This document shows positions 6,907 through 25,100 of a stretch of 64,000 bases of DNA, in pieces. The position numbers and the translations under genes are program-made. The notes below the pieces were generated by a model that searched no databases, was not told the DNA's origin, and worked only from the letters and a program-made list of their open reading frames with translations. How positions within the stretch are numbered: position 1 is the stretch's first letter; every line of letters begins with the position of its first letter. Source of the stretch: Bacteroidia bacterium (lineage in GTDB: Bacteria; Bacteroidota; Bacteroidia; B-17B0; Aurantibacillaceae); assembly GCA_026003255.1 (NCBI GenBank), contig BPGX01000004.1:62001-126000 (forward strand), read 5' to 3'.

Positions 6907-7096
6907 TTTTATTTGTTTAAATTAAACTGTATTTTTGTTATTAAAACACACCCGTTTATCGGTAGTTTTTGTGAATGTAAATTTTTCATGCATGATTACT
7001 TTATCTCTCTTGCCTGATTGTCTTATTCAATGGTAGCAGGGTTAGCTGGTCGTTGAAATATTTTTGTTTTTTTGTACTTTGTTATTATTTTTTTTA

Positions 7097-7104
7097 TACC
7101 TTTG
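7097..7104 (+). promoter_or_regulatory. Predicted -7 box upstream of the first adhesin gene
   Basis: TACCTTTG (7097-7104) lies 18 bases before the ATG at 7123, with TTTG copies at 7071-7074 and 7078-7081 as possible -33 boxes. Two further TATTTTTG matches (6930 and 7059) occur in the same 216-base gap, so chance matches in this AT-rich sequence cannot be excluded. Nothing else recognisable lies in the gap. Confidence 0.4.
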
Positions 7105-7122
7105 CAGCAAAAATTATTTTGT

Positions 7123-10100
7123 ATGAATAAAAAATTATTATTCAATTGGGGTGTTTTCTCATTATTTGTAATAATGCTGATTCCTAATCAAGGTGTGGCT
7201 CAGTGTACTACGACTTCCATTACTATCCAATTTTCTGGGGCATTCTCATTAGGTTCAGCTTGTACCTCAAGCGGGGGGGTCTGTTTCAGTGACTATCAGT
7301 GTTTTGGCACTTGTGGTTTATGTACAGGTTCTTCTTTTTCAAGTAGTTTCACAGACCCCGTGCCTCCGGGTAACATTGTAGTAGGGGCTCAGGTGAATTA
7401 TTATTATAGTGGTTGTTCCGGTGGTTCCGGGTTTATGACTACATCCCTTAACGGAGTAAACATTGGGAATGCCAACTTCACCGCCGTTAACTGTAGTTGT
7501 GGTTCATGTTTTTTTACATCTACTCCCAATACACCTTTTAATTGCGGTATTCCTTCATACAACTATGGAGGTTCTAATACAGTATCCGGTAATTTTAGTG
7601 GAAGTTCCGAATGTATTGACAGAATAGAAGTGGTATTGTGTTACCGCTCTTCTACTCCTAATCCGGGTACGGCGTCGGCAAGCAGTTCTACTGTTTGTTC
7701 GGGGCAGTCGGTTAATCTTACTTTAGCAGGGTATCAAACAGGAGGAAGTATTCAGTGGCAATCGGCTCCTACTTCAGGCGGACCATGGACAAATATCCCC
7801 GGTGCTACTTCTGCTACATACAATACGGGCGTTCTCACTACCAATACTTGTTACAGAGCACAAGTAACCTGCGGTGGTACGGCATATTCCAATGTAATAT
7901 GTATCACAGTTAATCCCTTGCCTTCTGTATCTGTAAGTAATGCCACTATCTGCGCAGGCCAAAGTGCTACCTTGACCAGCGTTGTCAATCCTCCCGGCGG
8001 TTCATACAACTGGACACCCGGCGGCTTTACAACTTCAAGTATCGTCGTTTCTCCACCTTCTACACAAGTGTATAATCTTACTTATACTGACCTTAATGGT
8101 TGTTCAGCAACGGCTTCCGGTACAGTAGATGTGAATCCCGCACCTTCTATAACAATTAATAATCCAACGATTTGTGCTGGCCAATCCACTACTATAACAG
8201 CGACAGGTAATCCATCAGGTGGTACTTATTTATGGTCACCCGGTGGGGCTACAACTAACTCTATTGTTGTTTCACCTGGTTCTACTTCTACCTACACTGT
8301 TCAATACACAACCGGACCTGGCTGTCCTGGAACCGCTGTGGCTACTGTTGTTGTAAATCCTCTGCCAACAGTAGCGGTCAACAATGCTACGATATGTGGT
8401 GCTGGCAGTGCTACCTTAACTTCTACTGTCAATCCGACAGGCGGAAGTTATTTATGGTCCCCCGGTGGAATGACAACGTCTTCAGTAATAGTATCTCCTG
8501 CTTCTACTTCAAATTATACACTAAGTTATACCTCACCTGCTGGTTGTACCAATACCACTCAAGCCACAGTGTTTGTTAGCTCATTACCGACTGTTGCCGT
8601 GAATAATGCCACTCTTTGTTCTGCTCCGGGTGCCAGCGTTGTATTAACCGCTACTGTTTCACCAGGAGGTGGTACTTACACATGGACACCCATCGGTGGT
8701 GGAGGTCCTATTGTTGTAGTTTCACCTACTTCATCAACAAGTTATACAGTTACATACACAGAACCCGGCGGATGTTCTAATTCAGCAGTATCTTATGTAA
8801 CCGTTCTTCCAGGTTTTAGTTTTGCTGATTTTACTTATCCTAATCACCCTTGTGTAGATAATCAACCCTATACATTTTCTGCGACTGTGAGTGGTAGTGG
8901 TCCTTATTCCTATCAATGGAATTTCGGAAATGGTGCCACACCGCCTACTGCGACAACCCCGTCCGCATCAGTAAATTATTCTTTCTCAGGTATTAAAAAT
9001 GTTTATCTGGTAATCACCAATCTATCATCGGGCTGCAAGGATTCAATTGTACATCAAGTTACTATTGAAGATTTGCCTTTTGTTAATTTTTCCGCTTCAT
9101 CTCCTACCTGTGTTACCGATTCTGTTTTCTTTATTAATTATTCATGGATTGGCGGTAGTGCTACGATTGCCTCGTGGTTCTGGAATTTTGGCGATGGAAA
9201 TACTTCCACTCTATACCAGCCGTCTCATTTATATTCAACAGGCGGAACTTATACAGTATACCTTGTCGCCACTTCGGATTGGGGTTGTGATGATACATTG
9301 TTTAAAACTGTTACTGTTTCACCACTCACCATCCCGGGAAGTGTAAGTGCAAATGATACGGTTTGCGCTGTATCAAATAGTGGCACTTTAACTGTAAATG
9401 GCAATAATGGTAATGTAGTATCCTGGATGTATTCTGTTGATAATGGTAATACATGGATACCAATTGCAAATACCAACACTGTTTATACTTACAATAATTT
9501 ATCCCAAACAACCATCTTCGGTGCAGTGGTTCAAAGTGGTTCCTGTCCCACTGCAACAACTACTCCTAATGCTACAATCACAGTAGATCCTATTTCACAA
9601 GCAGGATTTATCAGACGCGATACACTCGTTTGTTTTATTCCTACTAACCAAGGCACTCTTGCTTTGATAAACTATACTGGAAATGTTGTTGACTGGTTTA
9701 GTTCAACGGATAATGGATTAACTTGGACATCCTTGTCAAACACCAATCCTTATTATGCTTTTTCAGGTTTGACAGATACTACCTATTATACGGCAGTTGT
9801 TCAAAGTGGAATTTGTCCGCCAGATACAACACCGATTACAAAAGTTTTGGTGAGATATTTTAATGGAGCAAAAATTATTCCTTCACCTGATACTTCAATA
9901 AGCATTGGTTTTTCTGTTCAAATTATTGCTAGTGGAGGTAATGGATTTGCATGGTCACCCAACTACAACATCTCCGACACTACTATTAATAATCCTTTTG
10001 TATGGCCGACGAAAGACACTACTTACATTGTTTATGTTCGCGATCAGTACGGTTGTTTGGATACCGCTACTGTAAAAATATTTGTTCTAAAAGATTACAA

Positions 10101-10377
10101 ACTCATCATTGCCAATACTATGACGCCTAACGGAGATAACTACAACGATTTCTTCTGGATAGGAATGATTGAACATTATCCAAATAATGAAGTAATGGTC
10201 TTCAACCGTTATGGACAAATGATTTACAAAGCATCAAAATACGATAATCAAAAAGTATATTGGGATGGCACTTATCAGGGCAATAAAGTTCCCGATGGGG
10301 CATATTACTATGTGATTAAATTTACCGATAGTAATGTAATTTTCAAAGGAAGCATTAACGTGATTAGTAGTCATTAG
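7123..10377 (+). CDS. Giant secreted PKD/Ig-like protein with gliding-type T9SS C-terminal domain
   Basis: This is an adhesin-like surface protein of about 1084 residues. The ATG at 7123 gives MNKKLLFNWGVFSLFVIML, a signal peptide ending at GVAQ. A Cys/Gly-rich N-terminal domain follows, then five or so Ig/PKD-like units of about 80 residues, each starting like VSNATICAGQSATL and carrying SYxWxPGG and SSIVVSPxST. Next come two PKD domains with WNFGNG and WNFGDGN, then two modules beginning with TVCAVSN and TLVCFIP. The end is a gliding motility-associated CTD (NTMTPNGDNYNDFF, FNRYGQMIYKA, YWDGTYQGNKVPDGAYYY), the signal used by T9SS for export and surface attachment. Ligand unknown. It is the first of five such genes; its last 89 residues are nearly identical to those of the 18784 gene. 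Confidence 0.88.
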   Translation: MNKKLLFNWGVFSLFVIMLIPNQGVAQCTTTSITIQFSGAFSLGSACTSSGGVCFSDYQCFGTCGLCTGSSFSSSFTDPVPPGNIVVGAQVNYYYSGCSGGSGFMTTSLNGVNIGNANFTAVNCSCGSCFFTSTPNTPFNCGIPSYNYGGSNTVSGNFSGSSECIDRIEVVLCYRSSTPNPGTASASSSTVCSGQSVNLTLAGYQTGGSIQWQSAPTSGGPWTNIPGATSATYNTGVLTTNTCYRAQVTCGGTAYSNVICITVNPLPSVSVSNATICAGQSATLTSVVNPPGGSYNWTPGGFTTSSIVVSPPSTQVYNLTYTDLNGCSATASGTVDVNPAPSITINNPTICAGQSTTITATGNPSGGTYLWSPGGATTNSIVVSPGSTSTYTVQYTTGPGCPGTAVATVVVNPLPTVAVNNATICGAGSATLTSTVNPTGGSYLWSPGGMTTSSVIVSPASTSNYTLSYTSPAGCTNTTQATVFVSSLPTVAVNNATLCSAPGASVVLTATVSPGGGTYTWTPIGGGGPIVVVSPTSSTSYTVTYTEPGGCSNSAVSYVTVLPGFSFADFTYPNHPCVDNQPYTFSATVSGSGPYSYQWNFGNGATPPTATTPSASVNYSFSGIKNVYLVITNLSSGCKDSIVHQVTIEDLPFVNFSASSPTCVTDSVFFINYSWIGGSATIASWFWNFGDGNTSTLYQPSHLYSTGGTYTVYLVATSDWGCDDTLFKTVTVSPLTIPGSVSANDTVCAVSNSGTLTVNGNNGNVVSWMYSVDNGNTWIPIANTNTVYTYNNLSQTTIFGAVVQSGSCPTATTTPNATITVDPISQAGFIRRDTLVCFIPTNQGTLALINYTGNVVDWFSSTDNGLTWTSLSNTNPYYAFSGLTDTTYYTAVVQSGICPPDTTPITKVLVRYFNGAKIIPSPDTSISIGFSVQIIASGGNGFAWSPNYNISDTTINNPFVWPTKDTTYIVYVRDQYGCLDTATVKIFVLKDYKLIIANTMTPNGDNYNDFFWIGMIEHYPNNEVMVFNRYGQMIYKASKYDNQKVYWDGTYQGNKVPDGAYYYVIKFTDSNVIFKGSINVISSH

Positions 10378-10506
10378 AGTTAATAAATTGAAAGGAGGTA
10401 GATTATTTTAACCCAAATTATTCATTAAACATTACTCAAACATTGTGCTTTTCCATATTACTGCTAGTTTTCACCTTTCCACAGGTGGAAGGGTAGTTGC
10501 AAGAAT

Positions 10507-10663
10507 AAAGAACAAGCCCGTCATTGCGAGGAACGTAGCGACAAAGCAATCCCGACTGGTATTCCTTCTTTCCATTACGAGATTGCTTCACTCCGTTCGC
10601 AATGACGTGTTGTTCTTTTCGTCATTTCGAAGAAGCATCGCTTCCGAAGATTCTCTTGGGAAT
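10507..10663. repeat. REP-like long inverted repeat (CGTCATTGCGAGG type)
   Basis: The 381-base gap between two adhesin genes (10378-10758) holds no convincing gene. It contains a large imperfect palindrome: CGTCATTGCGAGGAACG (from 10519) pairs with CGTTCGCAATGACG-like sequence ending at 10607, and the arms extend outwards through AAAGAACAA and TTGTTCTTT (10507-10618). A second small palindrome follows, TTCGAAGAAGC-ATC-GCTTCCGAA (10627-10648). The CGTCATTGCGAGG...AGCAATC unit is a dispersed repeat known from many bacterial genomes. A third hairpin, CCTTTCCAC/GTGGAAGGG (10474-10493), lies just upstream and may help end the preceding transcript. Small reading frames across the repeat are not genes. 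Confidence 0.75.
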
Positions 10664-10738
10664 ATTCTTGATTTCTAATGCATAATTTAAGTTGAAAAAT
10701 TTTTTGTGGATTTTTTGGAAAATTGACAAAAAATTGTA

Positions 10739-10746
10739 TAAATTTG
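10739..10746 (+). promoter_or_regulatory. Predicted -7 box of the second adhesin operon
   Basis: TAAATTTG (10739-10746) lies 12 bases before the ATG at 10759, with TTTG at 10714-10717 giving a 21-base spacer. It would drive the three closely spaced genes from 10759 to 21975. The leader would be very short. Confidence 0.5.
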
Positions 10747-10758
10747 CAAAAAAAAAAT

Positions 10759-13700
10759 ATGTTTCTTAAAAAGAGATTTATTCTATTATGTATAAGTGTG
10801 TTTATTTTTAAGTTAATCAAACCACAAATTACTTATACTTTTAATGCATCAAATGGAAGTTTTAATGCTTTACCGGGTGGTGCTACTACAATTTTTGGTG
10901 CTGGTGTGGACGATCAAATAAGTCCACCTATTGCAATTGGTTTTAATTTTCTGTTTGGGTGTCAATTGTATGACACAATGCAGGTGAGCTCTAATGGTTT
11001 TATTTATTTGACAACAACAAGTAATACGATAACGAATTCCTATCCTAATAATGATTTAGCTAATGTAGCAGACAGACCAATCATTGCTCCATTATGGGAT
11101 GATTTAAGGACTTCTCCTATAGGTGGTAAGGTGGTATATAGACGAACAGGGTCGCCCGGTAGTAGAGTGCTGACTGTTGAATGGAATACTATTCGTTGGG
11201 ATAAAGGCGCCTCACAATCTGCCATTCGATTTCAAGTAAAACTGTATGAAGGAAGCAATAAAATTGAATTTATTTATGACCCAATGGCTGGAAACGTTAA
11301 CAATGGCAGTGCTTCTATTGGATTAGCGGGTTTTGTTCCAGGAGATTATTATTCTGTGGATACTTTGGATATTTCAGCGGCCGTGAGTAAAACAGTCGAA
11401 ACTACTACTATCCAAAACAAACCCAGTCCGGGTTTAACTTTTGAATTTGGTCCACAATGTACAAATGTAGATGGAGGTGTCACAAGCATAAATAATCCTT
11501 TAACAACTGGATGTTATGGCAACAGTGAGAATGTTAATGTAACTATTAATAATTTTGGAAGTGTTGATATTTCTAATTTTCCTGTATCAGTAAAAATTAG
11601 TGGTGCAAATTCCCAATTGCTCACAGCAACCTATACCGGTACAATCACTGCCGGTTCAAGCGCTACTATGAATGTTGGTACAGCTAATATGACTAATCCA
11701 GGCACATATTACTTTAAAGCGTATACATCCATTGCGGGTGATTTGAACTTTAATAACGATACTACTTATGCTACTTTCTATAAACCACCAACTTTTGCTT
11801 TACCTCAGTATGTTGATTTTACAAATTACGATGGAACAAACCTGTCTACTTTATTTACGGGTTGGAATGAAGGACAGGGAGGATCAGTTCCAACAGGCAC
11901 CACCAGTGCTTGGGATTATGCCATTGGACTGGGCGATGCTACAAACTATACAGCAAAAGTTAATTTACTTTCAACAGTAAAAAATGAATGGATAATAGGC
12001 CCTATTGCTGTTCCCACTAATAGTACGATTTTAAGTTTTGATGCCGCAGTTACAAACGTAAATGATATAAATACACCCTCTACTATGGGAAGCGATGACG
12101 CATTATATGTGATGATTTCAACTGATTGTGGAATAACCTACACTCCTATCTTTACAGTAAATGCAAGTAATAATTTACCTAATAGTTTAACCAATTTTAC
12201 CGTATCTTTATCGAGTTATTCTAACACTCCAATAATTGTTGCTTTTTATGCTACCGATGGAACAGTAGCTGATCCTAATAATTATGATCTGCATATTGAT
12301 AACATCAATCTATATAACTTATTACCGACCGATGTTGGACCACTAAGTATTCTTCAGCCCACAAATTTTGACAATTGTTTTTTCAATGAAACATTTCTTG
12401 TGAAAGTGAAAAATTATGGAAGCAATGCTGTAAGTAGTAGTAATGTTGGCATTATTATTTCTGGACCTAATAATGGTACATTAAGCGGGACAACAGGAGC
12501 AATTTCATCGTTAGGAACAGCAACAATTAATCTCGGTAATTTCAATATGACAACACCGGGTACATACACAATTAAATTGTATGCCAGTACAGCAGGAGAT
12601 ATGAATGTATACAATGATACTCTTGTTTTTATTTACACAAGTGCAAAATTACCATATCCAACCCTGGAGACATTTGATAGTGCACCGCCGTTTGGCTTAC
12701 CAACTAATTGGAAAAACGATTTAATTAGTACAGAAAACTCATTTTATACTCGAATAACTGATTTAGTTTACGAACATGGTGCTGGTACACCCCCTACCAG
12801 AGGATTATGTTCTAACCTTTATATTTACAGCCCCAAATCCTGGGTGAAAACGCCAGTAGTTGGACCGCTAGGAAGTAATGCTGCTATTTCATTTTTGTAT
12901 AGAATAACAGATAATATCGATTATATAAATCCAGGTGGTCTTGCAACAAATTATAGTAATAATGACTCCATAAAAGTGTATGTTTCAAGTGATTGCGGAA
13001 GCACTTGGAATTTAATAGGATTTATAAATGGTGCTAGACATATTCAAACAACTGATTTTCAAAAAGCACAATTTTGTATAGGATCCTCTTATACCGGCCA
13101 ATATGTAAGATTAAAAATAGAAGCCAAATGGGCCGCTGGTGATTATTGGATAGATATAGATAGCGTACAAGTTTCTACATTTGACAAGCCCTTCATATAT
13201 GCAACCAATAATCCTTTATGTGCAGGGTTAAGTACAACTCTAATAACAACGGGTGGAGATAATTATTCATGGAATACAGGTGCTACAACAAATTCAATCG
13301 TAGTATCACCAACTACTACCACAATTTACACCTTACAGGTCTCAACTATTAATGGCTGCAGTGCAAGTAATACCATTCAAATTAGTGTTTACAATCAACC
13401 AACAATTTCTGTTACAGCTTCTTCTTCAACATTGTGTTTTGGTAATTCTGTTTCTTTAAGTCAAACGGGTTTAAATACATTTACATGGACAAATGGTATA
13501 AGTTCATCTACTCTCGATCCTGTTACATATACTCCCACAACTACTCAATCTTATACAGTATATGGCTATGATAACAATGGTTGCTTTGGTCAAAGTATTA
13601 CTACCATTTCTGTATTCCCAAATCCAACAATTACAACATCTGCTAGTTCATCAACATTGTGTGCACAAACTAATCTTACATTAAATGCTTCGGGTGCCGT

Positions 13701-14055
13701 AAATTATACATGGACAACTCCAACCTCAACCGTTACAAATAATCCTTATGTTTATATTCCAATTGCATCATCACCTGGCGTTCAATCATATACTGTAAGT
13801 GGAACTAACTCATTTGGTTGTCTGTCAACACAAATTCAAACAGTATATGTATATCCGTCTCCTAATCTAAATATTTCTGCTTCATCCAATGCCATTTGTG
13901 TTGGAAGTTCTGCCACGCTTGTTGCATCTGGTGCAAATAGTTACACATGGACAACGCCATCTGGAAATTTCCTACACAAATGTAATTGTTGTAAGTCCTA
14001 CTACAAATACAACTTATTCATTGAGTGGAACCAATTCTTATGGTTGCGTGAGTAA
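10759..14055 (+). CDS. Giant secreted adhesin-like protein, in-frame N-terminal part
   Basis: The ATG at 10759 gives MFLKKRFILLCISVFIF, a signal peptide. Then comes a NIDO-like sandwich (GFNFLFG, MQVSSNGFIYL, APLWDDL, YDPMAGNVNNGSASIGLAG), two CARDB-like segments (NVTINNFGSVDISNFPV and LVKVKNYGSNAVSSS), two MAM/jelly-roll-like segments, and Ig-like repeats with LCAGLSTTL, YSWNTGAT and VSPTTTT. True coding stops near 13968, where the frame shifts; the last about 28 residues given by this frame (from NFLHKCNC) are artefactual. Translation in shifted frames continues the same repeats and ends in a T9SS type A sorting domain (see the next entry). The intact protein would be about 1430 residues. 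Role inferred: surface adhesion or matrix. Confidence 0.75.
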   Translation: MFLKKRFILLCISVFIFKLIKPQITYTFNASNGSFNALPGGATTIFGAGVDDQISPPIAIGFNFLFGCQLYDTMQVSSNGFIYLTTTSNTITNSYPNNDLANVADRPIIAPLWDDLRTSPIGGKVVYRRTGSPGSRVLTVEWNTIRWDKGASQSAIRFQVKLYEGSNKIEFIYDPMAGNVNNGSASIGLAGFVPGDYYSVDTLDISAAVSKTVETTTIQNKPSPGLTFEFGPQCTNVDGGVTSINNPLTTGCYGNSENVNVTINNFGSVDISNFPVSVKISGANSQLLTATYTGTITAGSSATMNVGTANMTNPGTYYFKAYTSIAGDLNFNNDTTYATFYKPPTFALPQYVDFTNYDGTNLSTLFTGWNEGQGGSVPTGTTSAWDYAIGLGDATNYTAKVNLLSTVKNEWIIGPIAVPTNSTILSFDAAVTNVNDINTPSTMGSDDALYVMISTDCGITYTPIFTVNASNNLPNSLTNFTVSLSSYSNTPIIVAFYATDGTVADPNNYDLHIDNINLYNLLPTDVGPLSILQPTNFDNCFFNETFLVKVKNYGSNAVSSSNVGIIISGPNNGTLSGTTGAISSLGTATINLGNFNMTTPGTYTIKLYASTAGDMNVYNDTLVFIYTSAKLPYPTLETFDSAPPFGLPTNWKNDLISTENSFYTRITDLVYEHGAGTPPTRGLCSNLYIYSPKSWVKTPVVGPLGSNAAISFLYRITDNIDYINPGGLATNYSNNDSIKVYVSSDCGSTWNLIGFINGARHIQTTDFQKAQFCIGSSYTGQYVRLKIEAKWAAGDYWIDIDSVQVSTFDKPFIYATNNPLCAGLSTTLITTGGDNYSWNTGATTNSIVVSPTTTTIYTLQVSTINGCSASNTIQISVYNQPTISVTASSSTLCFGNSVSLSQTGLNTFTWTNGISSSTLDPVTYTPTTTQSYTVYGYDNNGCFGQSITTISVFPNPTITTSASSSTLCAQTNLTLNASGAVNYTWTTPTSTVTNNPYVYIPIASSPGVQSYTVSGTNSFGCLSTQIQTVYVYPSPNLNISASSNAICVGSSATLVASGANSYTWTTPSGNFLHKCNCCKSYYKYNLFIEWNQFLWLRE

Positions 14056-15050
14056 TAATCAATTTGTTTTTATCGGTTGTTCCACAACCTACAGTAAGTA
14101 TCTCTATCCCCTCAAATACTGTTTGTTCTGGTCAAAACATTTACAATGAGTGCTTCTGGTGCTACTTCTTATTCATGGATTTCTAGTCAAGGTAATTATT
14201 ATAATAGTTCTACAGTAACCACATCTTTATCGGCTAACACATCTTATACTGTTACTGGGTTTTTCTGGCAATTGTTCCGATACTAAAACTGTTCAAATTT
14301 ATGTTTCCAGCGTACCAAATATTAATGTCCTTTTCAACATCATCGGTTATTTGTGATGTTGGTACTGTAACCTTGTCAGCCAGTGGAGCAAGTAATTACA
14401 CATGGACTGGGTCAGATGGATCTACATATAATAGTAATGTCCATAGTTGTAAGTCCAACAGTAAAACACAACCTACTCTGTACAAGGTAGTCAGGGTATA
14501 TGTACAAGTAATACTAAAACAATTAATATTGCCGTATCCCAAATAACATCTACTATACAAAACACAAGATGCAATTCAACCAATTTGTAATAATGGATCA
14601 GCAACAATAACAGTTAATGGCGGTATTGGAAACTACTCGTATACATGGACGCCGGGTAATTATCATTCCAATCAAGTGAACTTTTTGTATAATGGAACAT
14701 ACACTGTATCAGTAAAAGATCAGGCAGGATGTACTAAAAATTATACACTCAGTATAGGATGTGTTACAGGAATTGAAGAATACTTCTTGGGAAATACCAA
14801 AATATACCCTAATCCAACTTCACAATTTCTATATTTAGAAAGTGATATGGTAAAAAATTTGAATGAATTAAATATTACGATATTAAACTCATTAGGTCAA
14901 AAAATGTTACCAAGAAGTTATTACACTTTAAACAATAAAATCTTGATTGATGTTTCGGATATTGCAGATGGGGTTTATATCTTACTTTTAATGGATAAAG
15001 AAAATACAGTTTTGAAAAACATTAAATTCATTAAATCTATCCACAAATAA
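13968..15050 (+). pseudogene. Frameshifted C-terminal part of the 10759 gene, with T9SS type A sorting domain
   Basis: Reading all three frames together reconstructs a continuous protein: YTNVIVVSPTTNTTYSLSG, VPQPTVSISIPSNTVCSGQN, MSASGATSYSWISSQGNYY, FSTSSVICDVGTVTLSAS, SNTKTINIAVSQITS, ICNNGSATITVNGGIG, then YNGTYTVSVKDQAGC. It ends IEEYFLGNTKIYPNPTSQ...LNSLGQKM...DGVYILLL, a type A sorting domain. Each junction needs the removal of one base from a short run: TTT 13968-13970, TTTTT 14067-14071, TTT 14140-14142, TTTTT 14260-14264, CC/TTTT 14329-14334, CC 14441-14442, AAAA 14463-14466, AAAA 14559-14562. Eight +1 events take frame 1 to frame 3, exactly as observed. The uniform pattern points to consensus errors more than to decay. 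The last in-frame segment spans 14676-15050. Confidence 0.75.
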
Positions 15051-15087
15051 AAAAAATAAACTATGAAAAATAAATTAATTTTTAATT

Positions 15088-18000
15088 GTGATATTTATTT
15101 TGTGGGTAGTACACAATGGTTTAATCTTCGCTCAGATAAACGAAACTGAAATTGAATATCAAGAGAGAAAGTTTGTTGAGAAACTGGCAATATATCCTTT
15201 TGATGAAGATTCTTTAAAGGGATTTGATGAAGCACGGATTTCAAAAGAAATAGAAAGTGAAACAAAAGATCCATTAGAACAAAAATTTTTTAATGTATTT
15301 AAAGAAAAGAGAATTTATATTAATCACAAATATAATTTACATCATGAATTAGAGGATTTAGGTTATGATGTATCCTATTTAAACAATAAATTTGACAACA
15401 ATTCAGTTTTGAGTGTCGCGTGCAACAATGAAGATTTTGAAACAGGGGATTTTACGGGTTGGATTGTCAATACAGGTGTAGTTTCAGACGCATGTTCGGG
15501 TGCTGGTTGTTGTGGGTCTGGTTTTGGTTTAGCCACTGTGATGACTACTCCTTTTAGTGACCCTTATGTAGGTGCCATACCAGCTTCACCTTTTGGTGGT
15601 ACACGAGTAGCAAAATTAAATGATGTCGCAGTGGGAGCAAGAGCTGTAAGAATTCGAAAAAACATCAATGTTACTCCCAATAATGCTTTGTTTCAGTTTG
15701 CTTATATTGCTGTATTGAATGTCCCCTCTAATTCACATCCCTGCTGTGCGGTACCCAAAATCAAAATTCGAATAATAGATCCTTCTGGTAATATTTTAGG
15801 TTGTCCACAAGTAGAAATTTCGGTTCCACAAGGTGGTTGTCCTCCATTACCTGCTGGTTGGGTTAATGCAGGTTCCGTCGTATATAATCCAACATGGCAA
15901 ATTGGTTCTATTGACTTAACGAGTTTTTTAGGACAAAACATTAGTATCATTGTGGATGTATATGACTGCACGTGGACAGGGCATTTTGGCTATGCTTATT
16001 TTGATGCTATATGTAAACCAATCACAATTGATGTAAATGGTATACAATTTCCTGCTGGCAACAATAATATCAATGTAACGGCTTGTGGGGCTTCAACCGC
16101 TACTCTTACTGCCCCTGCTGGATTAGCACCATATAATTGGAATGGACCTCCCAGTAGTGGAATAACAAATAATCCTAATCAAACAATTACAACCACTGTC
16201 GCTGGAGTATACACATTAGTCATGAGTCCACCGGGAATATGTGCCCCTATTGTTAAAACCATGACATTAAATTTTTCGCCACCTATTACACTTTCTGTAA
16301 ATAGTAGTTCTACAACTATATGTTCCGGGCAAAGTGCCACATTATCCGCTAATCCAAGTATGTCGGGCGGAACATTTACATGGATACCTACTGGATCTAA
16401 TTCTTCCAGTGTAATTGTTTCTCCACCTTCATCACAAGTTTATACAGTCAATTATACTGCACCCAATAGTTGTCCTGCTTCTGCTACATTTACATTAAAT
16501 GTTAATCCAACACCAACTATTGCATTATCATCAGGTACATTATGTAGCGGAAATTCAATTATTATAACCTCCACTGTAAATCCTTCTTCAGGATTAAGTT
16601 ATACATGGCTTCCCGGTGGGAATAATTCTCCTAATATCACAGATACTCCTCCTATTACAACCACTTATACACTTTTAGTTCAAACCTCTGCTGGATGCTT
16701 TAATACAACTGCTACTACAATCACAGTTTTCCCTACACCTACTATCACTGTGTCTAATCAAACAATATGTAATCAATCAAGTACAATACTGAATCCAACT
16801 ATTTCGCCATCTGGTGGGAATTATACATGGATGCCAACAGGACAAACTTCTTCTTCAATAGCCGTATCACCAACTACTAATACTTCATATACGGTAAATT
16901 ATCTTTCATTAGATGGTTGTTTTCAATCTGCGGTTATTAACGTAAATGTTAATCCATCTCCAACAGTTTCAATTAGTAATTATACTTATTGTTCATCACC
17001 CAACAATTTTATCATACTTTCTGCCAGTTCAGTTAATCCTCCTGGTGGAACATACATCTGGTGGCCATCAGGAACAATTAATTCAACTATCGCTGTCTCT
17101 CCCTCAGTAACCACAACCTATACTTTAGATTACATTGATCCGAACAATGGTTGTAAAACATCAGCAACATCAACAGTGGTTGTAAGACCAGGATTTTTAA
17201 TATTAAATTTTAATCCTGATAATTGGTATAAATGTGAAGGAAATGCTAGCTTTACTCTCACTCCAAACATTTTAACCTCTACTGGTTCATACAGCATTGC
17301 TTGGAACTTTGGAGCAGCTGGTAACCCTTCTATTTCTTTTTCAAATCCTGGATTTACTCAATACAACACTCCTGGAACATACCCTATCACATTAATTGGT
17401 ACTAATTTATTGAGTAACTGTAAAGATAGCATAACTAAATTTGTTCATGTAGAACCACTTCCTGATTTAGATTTTATTTATAATACTAAAAGTTGTCAAA
17501 GTGATAGTATTTATTTCACTAATTTATCCTGGGTAGGAGGATTAAGTCAAATTACCGGATGGCTCTGGAATTTTGGTGATGGAAATTTTTCTACTCAACA
17601 ACATCCAGCACATCATTATACCAATAATGGAGTTTATTCTGTAACCTTGAGCGCTGTAACTGATTATGGTTGTACATCATCGATTACTAAAACAATAAAT
17701 GTTTCACCAAATAGTGCAGCAGGAATAGTGATTTCTTCTCAAACAGTATGCGCCTCTTCTGCTAATGGTACTTTGCAGTTAAGTGGCAATGTAGGTCAGG
17801 TGCTTCAATGGGAATATTCGGATAACTATGGAGTAAATTGGTATGTAATAAATAATACTTCCATAGTTCAACCATTTAGTAATATACAATCTACAAGATG
17901 GTATAGAGCATTAATTAAAAGCGACGATTGCCCTGCAATGTATACTACACCATTTGCGACAATTACAGTGGATATGCCCAGTAAAGCAGGTGAAATATTA

Positions 18001-18762
18001 ACCAATAGTACTGTAGTTTGTATTGAAGGCAACACTTTATCACTAACAACGAATAATTACATTGGAACAATTGAATACTGGCTTTTATCTCAAGATGGCA
18101 TAAACTGGGATACAATTCCTGGATCTTATGGACAAAATCCTTTGCAAATCACAAACTTAAATGATACTTCTTATTTTCAAGTTTTAGTAAAAAATGGTGT
18201 ATGCCCTGTAGATTCTTCTAATAAAATTACTGTATATGTTCAAAAATTCAATGCAACAACTCCTCTTTCTTATACAAATACTATTAGTTTGGGAGATAGT
18301 ATTCAGCTCGTTGCGGAAGGAGGAACACAATTTAACTGGCAACCACCATATAACATTAATAATCCGTTTATTTTCAATCCAATTGTATGGCCACAGAAAG
18401 ATACTAATTATGCAGTAATAGTCACCAATCAATATGGTTGTAAGGACACATTGTCTTTTAGAATTATCGTTAATAAAGATTTTCAACTTATTATTGCTAA
18501 TACTATTACTCCCAATAACGATGGTAAAAATGACATCTGGTGGATAGGTAATATTGAAAACTACAATGAAAATGAAGTATTTATATTCAATCGTTATGGA
18601 CAAATGATTTATCAAGCAAAAAATTATGATAATAAAAAAATTTATTGGGATGGTACTTATCAAGGTCAAAAAGTACCAGATGGAACTTATTACTACGTAT
18701 TAAAATTTAATAATGCTGAAACAATTTTTAAAGGTCACATTAATGTGATTTCTTCTCATTAA
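15088..18762 (+). CDS. Giant secreted PKD/Ig-like protein with gliding-type T9SS C-terminal domain
   Basis: This protein of about 1224 residues has a helical N-terminal stretch (ERKFVEKLAIYPFDED), a Cys-rich jelly-roll domain (DFETGDFTGWIVNTG; residues about 110-310), and four to five Ig-like repeats (TICSGQSATLSANPSMSGG, YTWLPGGNNS). Two PKD domains (WNFGAAG, WNFGDGN) and a gliding-type CTD follow (NTITPNNDGKNDIWW, FNRYGQMIYQ, YWDGTYQGQKVPDGTYYY, ending INVISSH). The GTG at 15088 gives only half a signal peptide. An ATG at 15063 lies one frame off; removing one base from the T5/A2 run at 15079-15085 joins MKNKLIF to IVIFILWVVHNGLIFAQ, a complete signal. I therefore think the true start is 15063 and that this is a ninth +1 error. 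It starts 13-38 bases after the preceding gene and is likely in one operon with it. Confidence 0.85.
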   Translation: MIFILWVVHNGLIFAQINETEIEYQERKFVEKLAIYPFDEDSLKGFDEARISKEIESETKDPLEQKFFNVFKEKRIYINHKYNLHHELEDLGYDVSYLNNKFDNNSVLSVACNNEDFETGDFTGWIVNTGVVSDACSGAGCCGSGFGLATVMTTPFSDPYVGAIPASPFGGTRVAKLNDVAVGARAVRIRKNINVTPNNALFQFAYIAVLNVPSNSHPCCAVPKIKIRIIDPSGNILGCPQVEISVPQGGCPPLPAGWVNAGSVVYNPTWQIGSIDLTSFLGQNISIIVDVYDCTWTGHFGYAYFDAICKPITIDVNGIQFPAGNNNINVTACGASTATLTAPAGLAPYNWNGPPSSGITNNPNQTITTTVAGVYTLVMSPPGICAPIVKTMTLNFSPPITLSVNSSSTTICSGQSATLSANPSMSGGTFTWIPTGSNSSSVIVSPPSSQVYTVNYTAPNSCPASATFTLNVNPTPTIALSSGTLCSGNSIIITSTVNPSSGLSYTWLPGGNNSPNITDTPPITTTYTLLVQTSAGCFNTTATTITVFPTPTITVSNQTICNQSSTILNPTISPSGGNYTWMPTGQTSSSIAVSPTTNTSYTVNYLSLDGCFQSAVINVNVNPSPTVSISNYTYCSSPNNFIILSASSVNPPGGTYIWWPSGTINSTIAVSPSVTTTYTLDYIDPNNGCKTSATSTVVVRPGFLILNFNPDNWYKCEGNASFTLTPNILTSTGSYSIAWNFGAAGNPSISFSNPGFTQYNTPGTYPITLIGTNLLSNCKDSITKFVHVEPLPDLDFIYNTKSCQSDSIYFTNLSWVGGLSQITGWLWNFGDGNFSTQQHPAHHYTNNGVYSVTLSAVTDYGCTSSITKTINVSPNSAAGIVISSQTVCASSANGTLQLSGNVGQVLQWEYSDNYGVNWYVINNTSIVQPFSNIQSTRWYRALIKSDDCPAMYTTPFATITVDMPSKAGEILTNSTVVCIEGNTLSLTTNNYIGTIEYWLLSQDGINWDTIPGSYGQNPLQITNLNDTSYFQVLVKNGVCPVDSSNKITVYVQKFNATTPLSYTNTISLGDSIQLVAEGGTQFNWQPPYNINNPFIFNPIVWPQKDTNYAVIVTNQYGCKDTLSFRIIVNKDFQLIIANTITPNNDGKNDIWWIGNIENYNENEVFIFNRYGQMIYQAKNYDNKKIYWDGTYQGQKVPDGTYYYVLKFNNAETIFKGHINVISSH

Positions 18763-18783
18763 CTTACTCTCAAAAATAATCTT

Positions 18784-21700
18784 ATGATCAAAAAATACAT
18801 TCTTTTAGTGAATACATTATTGTGTATTGTTGTACTTAAATTGGAAGCACAAAATCAAGGCACTTACGTGAAAACGTTTAATTTTCCGGGTTATACCGGT
18901 GCTCATTCTTTGTATAAGACGCAAGATGATGGATATGTTTTAACTGGTGAAATGAGAGAAACATCCAGTGGCGATGCTAACATGTATTTGTATAAAGCAA
19001 GTGCTTGTGGAAATGTTGAATGGTTTAGAACTTTTGGTTCTTCCACAAACGATGGTGCTAACGAAGTCAAACAACATTCTACTAATGGCTATCTTATAAC
19101 GGGCTATTATGATGATAATAACGGAGGAGGGGATAAAAAAGATGTTTCTATTTTGAAAACCGATGTATTTGGTAACGTCATCTGGCATTCTACATTGAAT
19201 AACAGTGTTGCTAACGATGAAGATGAGGGAAATGATTTAATTGAACTGCCGGGAGGCAATGTAATTGTTGGCGGATACACCAGTAACTTTCCGTGGAGTG
19301 GTAGAAATGGTTTTTTCTCAATTATTTCAGGTGGTACTGGTGCAATGATTGCTACAAAAGTTATTGGAAATAATGGTAATGATGTAGTTGAATTTGTTAT
19401 TGGTGGTAGTTTAAATGATTTTTATATTGGAGGTTACACTAATTCTTTTGGTGCAGGTCAAAATGATATATTTCTTGCTAATGTAGATGCAAGTGGAAAT
19501 ATACTATGGATAAAAACTTATGGGACTTCAGCAAATGAAGGAGGACCAAAAGAAATAAAAGCTATCAGGGTCCCCACAGGGATATTAATTGTAAGTTATA
19601 CCGACAATACAACACTCACAGCTGGTGGAAAGGATATTCTTTTAATCAATGTTGACTTAAGTGGAAATGTATTGTGGGCAAGAGTGTATGGAGGTAATCA
19701 GGATGAAAGTGGAAAAAATATAATAATTTCTTCTCTTGGAGGATACCTCGTAACAGGATACACTAATACATTTACAAATGGAGATAGAGATGCTTTTGTA
19801 ATGAGATTGGACAATAGTGGAAATTACTTATGGTCAAAGAGTTATGGAAATATTGGGTGTGATTATGGAAATGATATCATCGACATGGGCATGGGCTACA
19901 TAATTTCTAACAACTATAATAATACCTTAAATACTTGTTCTTTTAATAATGAGTACGATCCTTTAATAATTAAAATTGATTCTATTGGTAATTCAGGATG
20001 TAATAATGTTTCTGCATTTTTTAGCTCAAATATTATAACTTCAAGCATCATATCTAATAACATTAATGTTAGTTCTAATTCACAGGATATCACAAGTAAC
20101 ATACAAACACAGTATCCGGTTCCGTATTCAACTAATCCAGTTATCAATGAACAATTTAATTGCTATTCCTGCTCAAATGTATCAGCAGCTTTTTCAACTT
20201 CTACCAATACACTTTGTACAGGAGATTATATTATACTTCAAAATACCTCTGGTGGAAGCGGAGGTACCTGTTTTCAGTGGATAATTAACAATTCGCAAAT
20301 AATAAATTACAAAGATACTCTTATTTTACAACCCAACCCTGGTTCCTATGTGGTCCAACTGAATGCTATTTGTGGTAATACCGTATCAAGTTATAATCAA
20401 ACAATAACAGTTTATCCTAAACCATACAGTCAATTTACTTTCACCAATAATACATGTTTTGAAAATCTGCCAACGAATTATCTCAATATAGGTTCGAGTG
20501 GAATTGGATATAGTTATACATGGTACCTTGGTTCAGGGGCTACTCCTTCAACTGTGAATACACCTAATGCCAATAACATTACATACGCTTATCCCGGCAT
20601 CAAAAATGTAGCTTTAGTTATTACTAACTCTTATGGTTGTAAAGATTCTGTAATGCATCTGGTATCAATAGAACCTTCTCCGAGTGTGGATTTTCTGGTC
20701 AGTAAAAACCCTGCTTGTATATCTGATACTATTTACTTTATCAATAATAGTTGGATAGGAAGCGGAAGTATATTAAATAATTTTTACTGGAATTTTGGAG
20801 ACGGAAATACTAGCACACAAAAAAATCCTTTTCATAAGTATTCCACCGCCGGCACCTTTACAGTAACCCTTGTGGCTACTTCTGATTATGGTTGCGATGA
20901 CACAGCTCAATATACTATCCAGATTGATAATTTATCCGTATCTGGGAACATAACTCCATCTTTTACAACGGTCTGTGAAGGATCTAATTTAGGTACCTTA
21001 ATTGTTAATGGCTTTAACAGCGAAATTCAATTCTGGCAAATGAGCGTAGATAGTGGAAAAACATGGTCTGTATTATCTAATACAGCATCTATTCAGGGCT
21101 ATTATAATTTAACCAATACTACACTATTTTCTGCATGGGTTTATAATGGAACATGTCCGCCGGTGGCTACCCCTATTGCAACGGTTCAAGTAGACAAAAA
21201 ATCAGATGCCGGTATATTATTGAAAGACACAGTGGTTTGTTATGGTGTAAATTCTGGCACTCTTACTCTTACGAATTATTTCTCTACAATTCAAAATTGG
21301 ATAATGTATGATGCTACCAATGGTTATCAAATCATTCCAAATACGAACTCAAGTTATACCTTTAATAATTTAACAGATACTACTCAATTTGCAGCAGTGG
21401 TTCAAAACGGTGTTTGCCCATCTGATACATCTAATTATGTTACTGTTTATGTTCAACAATTCAATGGTGCTATTGCTTTTCCACTCGATACTTCCATCAG
21501 CCTGGGATATTCAGTCCAAATAACTGCCACCGGTGGTTCAAATTACGCCTGGACCCCCAACTATAATATTTCAGACACAACTGCTTTCAATCCAATAGTT
21601 TGGCCATATAAAGACACTACTTATTTTGTAATAGTGACAAATCAATATGGTTGTGTTGATACGGCATCAGTAAGAATATTTGTTGAAAAGGATTACAAAC

Positions 21701-21975
21701 TCATCATTGCCAATACTATGACACCTAATGGCGATAACTACAACGACTTCTTCTGGATTGGAATGATTGAACATTATCCAAATAATGAAGTAATGGTATT
21801 CAACCGCTACGGACAAATGATTTACAAAGCCAATAAATACGATAACCAAAAAGTATACTGGGATGGTACTTATCAGGGTAATAAGGTTCCCGATGGGGCT
21901 TATTATTACGTTATCAAGTTTACCGATAGTAATGTAATTTTCAAAGGAAGTATTAATGTGATTAGTAGTCATTAA
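18784..21975 (+). CDS. Secreted beta-propeller/PKD protein with gliding-type T9SS C-terminal domain
   Basis: This 1063-residue protein starts at an ATG 21 bases after the previous stop. Signal peptide MIKKYILLVNTLLCIVVLKLEAQ. Residues about 25-380 form about seven repeats of the type DGYVLTGE...ANMYLYK...GNVEWFRTFG, seen again as GGYLVTGYTNTF...DAFVMRLDNSGNYLWSKSYG, which fits a beta-propeller. Then come a Cys-containing linker, PKD domains (YLGSGATPS, WNFGDGN), two TVCEGSN/VVCYGVN modules and the gliding CTD. The last 89 residues match the 7123 gene with one substitution (KASKYD to KANKYD) although about two dozen codons differ silently. T9SS substrate, probably surface-attached; binding partner unknown. 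Confidence 0.88.
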   Translation: MIKKYILLVNTLLCIVVLKLEAQNQGTYVKTFNFPGYTGAHSLYKTQDDGYVLTGEMRETSSGDANMYLYKASACGNVEWFRTFGSSTNDGANEVKQHSTNGYLITGYYDDNNGGGDKKDVSILKTDVFGNVIWHSTLNNSVANDEDEGNDLIELPGGNVIVGGYTSNFPWSGRNGFFSIISGGTGAMIATKVIGNNGNDVVEFVIGGSLNDFYIGGYTNSFGAGQNDIFLANVDASGNILWIKTYGTSANEGGPKEIKAIRVPTGILIVSYTDNTTLTAGGKDILLINVDLSGNVLWARVYGGNQDESGKNIIISSLGGYLVTGYTNTFTNGDRDAFVMRLDNSGNYLWSKSYGNIGCDYGNDIIDMGMGYIISNNYNNTLNTCSFNNEYDPLIIKIDSIGNSGCNNVSAFFSSNIITSSIISNNINVSSNSQDITSNIQTQYPVPYSTNPVINEQFNCYSCSNVSAAFSTSTNTLCTGDYIILQNTSGGSGGTCFQWIINNSQIINYKDTLILQPNPGSYVVQLNAICGNTVSSYNQTITVYPKPYSQFTFTNNTCFENLPTNYLNIGSSGIGYSYTWYLGSGATPSTVNTPNANNITYAYPGIKNVALVITNSYGCKDSVMHLVSIEPSPSVDFLVSKNPACISDTIYFINNSWIGSGSILNNFYWNFGDGNTSTQKNPFHKYSTAGTFTVTLVATSDYGCDDTAQYTIQIDNLSVSGNITPSFTTVCEGSNLGTLIVNGFNSEIQFWQMSVDSGKTWSVLSNTASIQGYYNLTNTTLFSAWVYNGTCPPVATPIATVQVDKKSDAGILLKDTVVCYGVNSGTLTLTNYFSTIQNWIMYDATNGYQIIPNTNSSYTFNNLTDTTQFAAVVQNGVCPSDTSNYVTVYVQQFNGAIAFPLDTSISLGYSVQITATGGSNYAWTPNYNISDTTAFNPIVWPYKDTTYFVIVTNQYGCVDTASVRIFVEKDYKLIIANTMTPNGDNYNDFFWIGMIEHYPNNEVMVFNRYGQMIYKANKYDNQKVYWDGTYQGNKVPDGAYYYVIKFTDSNVIFKGSINVISSH

Positions 21976-22199: not shown

Positions 22200-25100
22200 A
22201 TGAGAAAAGTATCCCCGTTTGTTTGTCTTTATCTTTTCATTCTCATTCTGTTTTTCTCAAACATTATGCTCGCCCAAACAACTTGTTCTAATGCAGCTCC
22301 TTTTTGCACATCAACCGGAGTTAATTTTCCTGCTGGTGTGAATAATGGCTCCGCTCCTTCAGGACCTGATTATGGTTGTTTATTAACTCAACCCAACCCT
22401 GCTTGGTACTACTTAAATATTGCTACCTCTGGTCCTATTGATATTACATTGACAAATAGTGCTAATGTTGACATTGACTTTATCTTATGGGGGCCTTACT
22501 CCTCTCAAGCCGCAATGTGTCCTAATATTATGACCTCTAGCGGAAGCGGCCCATATATTGTAGATTGTAGCTATTCTACCGCAGCAACAGAATACGTTAA
22601 TATACCCAATGCTATTGCAGGACAGTGGTATATGTTATTGATCACTAATTATTCCAACCAACCTACTAATATTACTGCTACTCAAACAGGTGGCACTGGA
22701 GCAACAAACTGTGCAATTTTATGTAATATTACAGGAATGACTGCTTCTCCAAGTGCTTGTAATCCTTCTAATAACACTTATTCGGTATCAGGAGTAATCA
22801 CAGTTACAGCACCCCCAAGCACAGGTAATCTCACTATCACAAATAGTTGCGGTGGAACTCCAATTACATTAAACCCACCATTTTCTACATCCATTTCTTA
22901 TAGTTTTACTGGTTTAAATTCAAATGGTGCATCTTGTGTTGTAACAGCAGGATTCTCTGCCGACCCCACATGTACTTTTGCAGTTAATTATACTGCTCCT
23001 GCCTCTTGTTCTGTTTCTTGCTCCATGACCGCCTCCGCGTTTCAAACATCAAGTATATCTTGTTATAATGGTTCAAATGGTAGTGCCAGCGTTTCTGTAT
23101 CTTCAGGTACCTCGCCTTTCTCCTATACATGGTCACCAACAGGAGGTAATAGTGCCTCCGCAACAGGTCTAATAGCCGGCAATTATACCGTTACCGTTAA
23201 AGATGCTAACAACTGTTCTGCCAACGCAACTGTCCAAATCACTCAACCTTCTCTCTACACTCTTGCCATGACCACTCAATCCGCCAGCTGTTCAACACCC
23301 GGTTCTGCTACCGTATCTGTAAGCGGTGCTGTAGCCCCTTATTCCTACACATGGTCGCCTAGCGGCGGAAACTCCAACATCGCCACAGGGCTCTCTCCAG
23401 GTTCTTACACCGTAACCATCAAAGATGCAAACAACTGCTATACTACTGCCGTTGCCAATATCACAGGGGCTCCTGCCGTTAGCATTAGTGGTGTGAATAT
23501 TAACTCGGTCGCTTGTAACGGACTTTCCAACGGCTCTGCCACCATCAACCTCTCCGGCGGTGCTACACCCTACTCCTATACATGGACACCTTCCGTTAGT
23601 ACTTCCTCCGTTGCCACAGGATTATCCGGAGGAACTTATTCCGTTCAGGTCAAAGACAATAACAACTGTATCACCAATACCGTCATAACCATTTCTCAAC
23701 CACCTGCTCTTTCTCTCACCGCTACTCAAACCCAAAGCGTAAGTTGTAACGGCGGTAACAATGGTGCTGCTAATGCTTCCCCCAGCGGCGGTGTGGGTGG
23801 ATATACTTATACATGGTCACCTACCGGCGGAAATAGTTCAACTGCTTCCGGTCTTACAACAGGAATCTACACCATCACCGTCAGTGACGCTAACAATTGT
23901 ACTATCTCATCCACCGTCCAGATACTTGAACCGCCTGCCTTATCCCTCACCGCTACTCAAACGCAAAGTGTAAGTTGTAACGGCGGTAACAATGGTGCTG
24001 CTAATGCAACCGCCAGCGGCGGTGTCGGTGGTTACTCCTACACATGGGCACCATCAGGTGGAAATAATGCCAACACATCATCTCTGACCGCCGGCATTTA
24101 TACCATAAATGTATCCGATGCTAATAACTGCGGACCTATTAGCACTACCATCCAAATTATTCAACCGCCCGCATTAAGTATAACAATCACAGGTACCAAT
24201 GTTACCTGTAATGGATACAATGACGGTATTGCTACCGCCTCTGTATCAGGCGGCGTGGGCGGATACACCTATACCTGGTCCCCAACAGGAGGTAATAACA
24301 CTACCGCTTCCAATCTCTTTGCAGGAAATTATACCATACAAGTCAATGACGCCAACGGATGTCCTATTTCTGCCAACATTAACATCACACAACCTTCTGC
24401 TATCAACCTCGCCGTTACACCTAACCCAACCATCTGTTTCGGCAACAGCACCAATATCTCCGCTAATGCCAATGGCGGAACGCCGCCTTACTCCTATTCA
24501 TGGAACCCTAACATCACCTCTACTGGCGGACCAATTACTGTAAACCCAACAGTAACTACTAATTATTATGTCAATGTCAATGATGCTAACGGTTGTACAG
24601 GACCGTCTTCTGTTATCACGGTCTTCGTTAGACCTCCTCTATCAGCTACCGGCTTCACCGCCAATCTCTGCGATGGACAAAGCATCACGCTCTATCCAAC
24701 TATTACCAGTCCAGGTAATAACGGACCATACAATTACATCTGGAGCAATGGCGCCTCCTCGCCCTCTATCACCGTTAATGCTAACATCGCTCTCGGTTCT
24801 TCTAATACTTACTCGGTCATCATAGACGATGGTTGTACAAACCCTTCTGCCATCGCTGAATTTACCATCTTCATCTATCCTAACCCCGTCATCTCTTTCA
24901 GCGCTGACATCACAAAAGGTTGTGTGCCGGTGAATGTCAACTTTACAGCCAATACCAATAGTGTTAGTGTAAGTTCTTATACATGGGATTTTGGAAATGG
25001 ATTGACTGCTACAGGCAATCCTGTTGCTACCAGCTACACTGCTCCCGGCGTTTATTCTCCCACCTTAACTGCTGAAAGTCAATACGGATGTATTACACAA

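What the first reader, a model, noticed from the sequence alone, without database searches (positions are those of the whole stretch)
10090..21975. CTDs of two adhesins almost identical in protein but with about two dozen silent differences
The last 89 residues of the 7123 and 18784 proteins differ at one position, while I count about 23 synonymous codon differences between the DNA segments. The regions just before them have diverged clearly. This pattern means strong selection on the exact CTD sequence, not recent copying; the third family member (15088 gene) is more divergent but also ends INVISSH. The terminal domain may therefore be recognised by a specific partner shared by two proteins.
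Basis: seen in the sequence. Interest (0 to 1): 0.5.

Follow-up and report, generated by a model that had tools for sequence, protein, structure and literature searches.

The report
Shared secretion tag copied between adhesins
Neighbouring surface-protein genes in this bacterium carry an almost identical 95-residue export tag because the DNA for the tag was copied between them after related species split and was then held constant by selection, probably so that one outer-membrane shuttle can recognise all of them.

Summary
Over the last 89 residues the 7072 and 18784 genes differ at one residue and 23 silent codons (22 sense codons plus the stop). The domain is a type IX secretion (T9SS) type B sorting domain (PF13585, TIGR04131). 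Silent change in this domain is 22 of 86 between the two paralogues, but 43 of 80 and 39 of 78 between their true orthologues in a sister genome. Upstream trees group by orthologue. For the tag the orthologue topology is rejected by 76 log-likelihood units and grouping by genome fits. In the sister genome one copied tract runs past the stop codon (47 of 51 noncoding bases identical). So the tags evolve in concert by gene conversion, with strong purifying selection afterwards (dN/dS 0.014). The likely shared partner is an orphan PorP/SprF shuttle on another contig; its relative in G036 lies beside a gene with this tag class and is followed by a PorE-like gene. The parts are known; concerted evolution confined to a T9SS tag was not found in five searches.

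The parts
10090..10377 (+). Gene A: T9SS type B sorting domain (95 residues) and stop codon
   Evidence: PF13585 78.6 bits (cut-off 27), TIGR04131 65.7 bits (cut-off 35) for the protein; 98.9% identical to the gene C tag
7072..10089 (+). Gene A body: Ig-like (Ig_7) and PKD domains; orthologue of A2 in G002
   Evidence: A0-A2 82% over 835 residues, A0-C0 55% over 600 (whole proteins)
18475..18762 (+). Gene B: type B sorting domain of the same class, not recently homogenised with A or C
   Evidence: 71% identical to A and C; silent change 26 of 62 and 29 of 62
15088..18474 (+). Gene B body: PKD and weak Ig_7 match; orthologue of B2 in G002
   Evidence: B0-B2 75% over 1229 residues
21688..21975 (+). 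Gene C: type B sorting domain, partner of the homogenised pair with A
   Evidence: PF13585 81.6 bits, TIGR04131 65.8 bits; silent change with A 22 of 86
18784..21687 (+). Gene C body with PKD domain; orthologue of C2 in G002
   Evidence: C0-C2 70% over 1061 residues

Best explanation
The 95-residue C-terminal domain is the type B sorting signal of the type IX secretion system. Genes A and C are old paralogues whose bodies have diverged, but the DNA for their sorting signals was homogenised by non-reciprocal recombination (gene conversion) after this species split from its sister, and the protein has since been held almost fixed by purifying selection while silent sites drifted. The same happened separately in the sister genome G002 (three genes), and probably earlier over a longer stretch in the more distant G036. 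[quoted passage not shown] That shuttle would take A, B and C from the translocon and hold them on the surface, probably fixed to the cell wall through the PorE-like protein. Shown: domain identity, homogenisation, purifying selection, synteny and co-occurrence with the shuttle. Not shown: binding, secretion, anchoring, and that conversion was favoured because of the shuttle.
For: Domain. Homogenisation: silent change in the tag 22 of 86 (A0-C0) against 43 of 80 (A0-A2, p 2.5e-4) and 39 of 78 (C0-C2, p 2.0e-3); orthologue topology rejected for the tag (dlnL 76, AU 5.5e-4), A0+C0 grouping rejected upstream (dlnL 136); 47 of 51 identical bases after the stop in A2-C2 against 12-16 of 51 in the six other pairs examined; segment tests p below 0.0005 in A2-C2, A2-E2, C2-E2 (2000 permutations). 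Selection. Shuttle: PorP beside the tag gene in G036, 60% identical to the C3 orphan, next best 28.5% among the 17 of 19 PorP rows whose stretches I had fetched; tag at 60% or more in 4 of 87 family genomes, all among the 5 of 87 with this PorP at 60% or more; 13 of 15 next-best PorP rows lie 6-44 bp from a tag match; PorE-like gene after it in 5 of 5.
Against: Bootstrap support for A0+C0 alone in the ten-sequence tag tree is only 64. The A0-C0 segment test is weak (p 0.028) and no tract is left after its stop codon (14 of 51). A0-C0 against C0-A2 silent change is only p 0.033. G001 has the shuttle (86%) but its best tag match is 48%; it is 85% complete in about 250 contigs. Three of the five PorP genomes with... 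the co-occurrence are of one genus, so co-occurrence rests on few independent events. The PorE-like gene is below the NCBIfam PorE cut-off (142 of 600 bits). B uses a 71% identical tag that was not homogenised, so a uniform tag is not strictly needed.
Confidence: 0.75

Rival explanations
1. Selection alone: the tags have been separate since the ancient duplication, and purifying selection kept the protein nearly constant while silent sites diverged.
For: Strong constraint is real: tag dN/dS 0.014 and slower amino-acid change than the body between orthologues.
Against: Silent sites are more alike between paralogues than between orthologues; the orthologue topology is rejected; noncoding bases after the stop match in A2-C2.
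Confidence: 0.04
2. The copying is real, but it is only a by-product of recombination between the most alike stretches of neighbouring genes; no partner drives it, and uniformity has no benefit of its own.
For: The tag is the most conserved stretch and so the best substrate for recombination; one family pair (22200 with L077 5185-6912) shows more recent homogenisation of the body than of the tag (17 of 85 silent in the tag, 34 of 418 in the body).
Against: In ten of 15 pairs with tags at least 80% alike the tag has fewer silent changes than the body; the A0-C0 tag also has very low dN/dS. These do not exclude a by-product.
Confidence: 0.45
3. Independent tandem duplication or exchange of whole 3' gene ends in each lineage rather than conversion within standing paralogues.
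For: The genes lie in tandem, where unequal crossing-over is possible; in the C18 cluster a gene with an 87% identical body carries a 65% identical tag, which looks like a swap.
Against: Bodies of A, B and C have one-to-one orthologues in G002 and group with them at 100 support, so any exchange was confined to the 3' end and is then the same thing as conversion.
Confidence: 0.1
4. Assembly artefact: a collapsed or chimaeric repeat made the two tags look alike.
For: The genome is a 31-contig assembly with estimated contamination 5.26%.
Against: Twenty-two silent differences spread over both halves of the tag (9 of 41 and 13 of 45), and the same pattern in the separate assembly G002.
Confidence: 0.01

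Closest known systems
[quoted passage not shown] abstract, Results parts 1-2 of 3 and Discussion read)
   Same: Several type B adhesins without a neighbouring shuttle gene are assigned to one orphan PorP/SprF protein encoded elsewhere.
   Different: There the tags share >44% identity; here two are 99% and homogenised at the DNA level. [quoted passage not shown]
PorE-PorP-PG1035 complex of Porphyromonas gingivalis (PMC9143113; abstract and Discussion read)
   Same: A type B protein held by a PorP that binds a PorE; the C3 PorP is followed by a PorE-like gene in 5 of 5 genomes.
   Different: Three substrates of one tag class here instead of one; the PorE-like gene is below the NCBIfam PorE cut-off; no binding data.
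Concerted evolution of duplicated prokaryotic genes such as tuf, mtrA, fla (PMC6053082; passages seen)
   Same: Paralogues of one species more alike than orthologues, through gene conversion.
   Different: Here it is confined to about 95 terminal codons of long genes whose bodies keep diverging. The terms 'Bacteroidetes' and 'secretion' did not occur in that paper's main text.
Domain rearrangement and allelic exchange among gingipains and adhesins of P. gingivalis (PMC5266723; passages seen)
   Same: Recombination among paralogous T9SS substrates.
   Different: The passages concern adhesin and catalytic domains and diversity between strains, not homogenisation of the sorting signal.

Membership tests
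T9SS type B sorting domain (TIGR04131 / PF13585) | C-terminal profile match above the curated cut-off | tested here: met
   PF13585 78.6, 82.7, 81.6 bits (cut-off 27); TIGR04131 65.7, 74.6, 65.8 bits (cut-off 35) for A, B, C, at the protein end
T9SS type B sorting domain (TIGR04131 / PF13585) | Beta-sandwich fold like other T9SS sorting domains | tested here: inconclusive
   All-beta model with modest confidence (pLDDT 71.5); best solved match PorZ, E 2.1e-4, TM 0.54; third a NucA substrate complex, E 5.9e-3
T9SS type B sorting domain (TIGR04131 / PF13585) | Directs secretion and surface localisation | not testable with these tools
   Needs a secretion assay
Orphan type B substrates served by one PorP/SprF shuttle (Fjoh_1677 type) | No shuttle gene next to the substrate genes | tested here: met
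   0 of 19 TIGR03519 rows of the genome lie in the window
Orphan type B substrates served by one PorP/SprF shuttle (Fjoh_1677 type) | An orphan shuttle specific for this tag class exists elsewhere | tested here: inconclusive
   Synteny in G036 and co-occurrence point to C3:223642-224598; binding not tested; G001 has the shuttle without the tag
Static PorE-PorP-substrate complex | PorE homologue encoded next to the shuttle | tested here: inconclusive
   A PorE-like gene follows the PorP in 5 of 5 genomes, but scores 142 bits against a cut-off of 600 for NCBIfam PorE
Concerted evolution by gene conversion | Paralogues in one genome closer than orthologues, at silent sites too | tested here: met
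Concerted evolution by gene conversion | Copied tract visible outside coding constraint | tested here: met
   In G002 only: A2-C2 47 of 51 bases after the stop; for the window pair not met (14 of 51)

The most novel reading that the evidence does not exclude
Gene conversion acts as upkeep for a secretion address: it repeatedly re-copies the type B tag among adhesins that depend on one shuttle, so that tags and shuttle change together in each species while the adhesive bodies diversify freely. Swapping tags or shuttles between sister species would then fail.
Probability: 0.4. Interest if true: 0.62.

Novelty: new variant of a known kind. Interest (0 to 1): 0.45.

Why it matters
This genome has many more type B substrates than shuttles (57 PF13585 rows against 19 TIGR03519 rows, 16 over cut-off), and how orphan substrates find their shuttle is largely open. 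If tags that share a shuttle evolve in concert, comparing silent sites and tag classes could sort orphan substrates into shuttle groups from sequence alone. The case also warns that a conserved protein end with many silent differences is not proof of long separate descent.

Tried and rejected
Selection alone as the cause: rejected by silent sites, topology and noncoding identity.

Core PorP (C4:214275, beside a GldK gene) and the PorP beside a GldJ-like gene (C3:57280) as the partner: both are orphans, but the G036 neighbour PorP is 60% identical to the C3:223642 protein, 24% to the core PorP, and had no listed match (E 1e-3) to the C3:57280 or C8:48970 proteins. Two PorP rows at C3:161882-162758 were not fetched and not compared.

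Body dN/dS for A0-C0 could not be measured because silent sites are saturated, so less diverged adhesin families served as the yardstick.

Conversion of B with A or C: no evidence (silent change 26 of 62 and 29 of 62; a tree with A0, B0, C0 together is rejected, dlnL 42). The last residue, H in all three window tags and N in all four G002 tags, is one residue and was left unexplained.

The SprB-repeat family (22200, C9 twice, C3) has fewer silent changes in the tag in five of its six pairs (32-40% against 55-64%), but I did not check its orthologues, so this is weaker. The C1:341-346 kb pair shows no shortage and the three C1:145-149 kb genes only a trend (p 0.058-0.062). No correction for multiple tests was made.

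Searches for papers on gene conversion or concerted evolution of T9SS signals listed none on this subject by title; of the papers listed I opened only the four named in Closest known systems. The library holds open-licence PMC papers only.
Full report
NAMES. A0, B0, C0 are the window genes 7072-10377, 15088-18762, 18784-21975. A2, B2, C2, E2 are genes of the same-genus genome G002 (L045, L046), X3 of G003 (L047), P36 and Q36 of G036 (L048).

WHAT WAS SEEN. A0, B0 and C0 end in a type B sorting domain of the type IX secretion system (PF13585 and TIGR04131 above cut-off in all three). A0 and C0 differ at one of the last 89 residues and at 23 silent codons, one of which is the stop codon. The near-identical block is 95 residues long; the 363 aligned residues before it are 54% identical. 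B0 is 71% identical in the domain. In the own genome the next tag match after these three is 47% identical.

WHEN THE TAGS BECAME ALIKE. G002 holds the same cluster; its contig length and the compared gene agree with JAOAIP010000057.1, titled a Bacteroidia MAG. Whole proteins give clear orthologues: A0-A2 82%, B0-B2 75%, C0-C2 70%, against 55% over 600 residues for A0-C0; E2 pairs with X3 at 72%. So A and C separated before the two species did. In the sorting domain the order is reversed: A0-C0 99%, A0-A2 89%, C0-C2 89%. Silent sites show why. Of identical degenerate residues the codon differs in 22 of 86 for A0-C0, 43 of 80 for A0-A2 and 39 of 78 for C0-C2 (p 2.5e-4 and 2.0e-3). The cross pairs give 37 of 78 for A0-C2 (p 5.4e-3) and 34 of 81 for C0-A2 (p 0.033). 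Within G002 it is 19 of 83 (A2-C2) and 10 of 85 (C2-E2). Upstream, A0-C0 is at 52% and dS is saturated. The same codons have varied fully between species but not between paralogues of one genome.

TREES AND TRACTS. For 90 domain codons and eight sequences the orthologue topology is worse by 76 log-likelihood units (AU 5.5e-4), while grouping by genome fits as well as the free tree. For 361 upstream codons the orthologue topology is best; A0+C0 grouping is worse by 136 units and full genome grouping by 286. Bootstrap support for A0+C0 in the ten-sequence domain tree is only 64, although A0-A2, B0-B2, C0-C2, E2-X3 and P36-Q36 have 100 upstream. In G002 tracts are visible: A2 and C2 match at 47 of the 51 bases after the stop codon, against 12-16 of 51 in the six other pairs examined, and segment tests give p below 0.0005 (2000 permutations) for A2-C2, A2-E2 and C2-E2. 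A2 and E2 also share all 24 codons of the block that leads into the domain. In the window pair the segment test gives p 0.028 and nothing is left after the stop (14 of 51). In G036, P36 is A-like and Q36 is E- or C-like by their N-terminal parts, yet they group together over domain and adjoining body. That reads as an older and longer homogenisation, but their silent sites are near saturation (31 of 63 in the tag) and the segment test is not significant (p 0.08).

SELECTION. For the A0-C0 tag dN is 0.009 and dS 0.68, dN/dS 0.014 [0.002-0.048]. Six unsaturated body comparisons in three other adhesin families give 0.107-0.430, and one more diverged body pair (C1:516-520 kb, dS 5.0) 0.056. Tags are not always so constrained: 0.067-0.121 in G002 and 0.049-0.177 in three pairs of two other families, while one C18 tag pair has no silent change at all, so its ratio is undefined. 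Between orthologues the domain changes about 2-5 times more slowly than the adjoining body.

HOW COMMON IT IS HERE. My profile recovered 56 C-terminal domains in the fetched stretches of this genome, three of them weak; 47 pairs had tags at least 60% alike. Sixteen pairs had tags at least 80% alike; one was dropped because it has no body to compare. The other 15 fall into six families. In ten of the 15 the tag has fewer silent changes than the body at p below 0.05, and these ten lie in four families (C18 cluster, A/C, C1:516-520 kb, SprB-repeat). One pair shows the opposite (22200 with L077 5185-6912) and four show no significant difference. Pairs within a family are not independent. The clearest case is the C18 cluster (L067): three tags with 0-1 silent change of 87-90 but 23-37% in the body, while a fourth gene whose body is 87% identical to one of them carries a 65% identical tag, as if the tag had been swapped.

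THE PARTNER. Type B tags are read by PorP/SprF-family shuttles, and in F. johnsoniae three orphan tags share one orphan shuttle (PMC12618676; abstract, Results parts 1-2 of 3, Discussion read). No PorP match of this genome lies in the window (0 of 19 rows). In G036, P36 is followed directly by a PorP/SprF gene and then a PorE-like gene. Their closest relatives in G000 are the orphan PorP at C3:223642-224598 (L089) and the gene after it, both 60% identical; the next PorP is 28.5%, with 17 of the 19 PorP rows compared. Among 87 family genomes this PorP occurs at 60% or more in five (G000-G003, G036) and the tag at 60% or more in four, all among the five. A simple hypergeometric value is 2e-6, but it ignores that four of the five are one genus. 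G001 is the exception, with the shuttle but no such tag. G036 is the only one of 40 genomes of its genus with either. Of the 15 next-best PorP rows outside G000-G003, 13 lie 6-44 bp from a tag match. The PorP is followed by the PorE-like gene in 5 of 5 genomes; that gene scores below the NCBIfam PorE cut-off. PMC12618676 and PMC9143113 (Discussions read) link PorP-PorE pairs to static anchoring, so A, B and C are more likely fixed adhesins than gliding ones. 'Adhesin' itself rests on PKD and Ig-like domains. Binding is inferred, not shown.

FOLD. A five-sequence model of the domain is all-beta with modest confidence (pLDDT 71.5). Its best solved match is PorZ, a T9SS protein (E 2.1e-4), and the third is a T9SS NucA substrate complex (E 5.9e-3). 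By sequence the best solved relative is the C-terminal end of the grappling hook protein of Aureispira (E 2.5e-11).

VERDICT. Constraint is supported and a shared partner is plausible; separate long descent of the tags is not supported. Concerted evolution is known in prokaryotes (PMC6053082, passages) and recombination among T9SS substrates is known (PMC5266723, passages). Concerted evolution confined to the sorting tag, with a candidate orphan shuttle, was not found in five searches of the held library.

Noticed in passing
window 10765-15035: A further long surface-protein gene between A and B with a type A-like (PF18962) end is broken by several frame changes in its last part, while a sister genome (L043 1-4257) has one open frame. 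Decay or assembly error cannot be told apart here.
   Followed up: partly
L067 2020-10364 (G000:C18): Tandem genes of about 655-668 residues: three share tags with 0-1 silent change, the fourth has an 87% identical body to one of them but a 65% identical tag.
   Followed up: partly
window 22200-25694 and L077 5185-6912 (G000:C9): SprB-repeat proteins whose bodies were homogenised more recently (34 of 418 silent) than their tags (17 of 85).
   Followed up: no
L051 1503-2579 (G000:C8): A 358-residue type B protein 47% identical to the A/C tag; similar-sized proteins (about 346-384 residues) carry top tag matches in many genomes of the family. Function not examined.
   Followed up: no
last codon before the stop of A0, B0, C0 and of A2, B2, C2, E2: The last residue is H in all three window tags and N in all four G002 tags, though B was not homogenised with A or C.
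   Followed up: no
G000 contigs at large: 95 PF18962 (type A) rows and 57 PF13585 (type B) rows in a 3.05 Mb genome.
   Followed up: no
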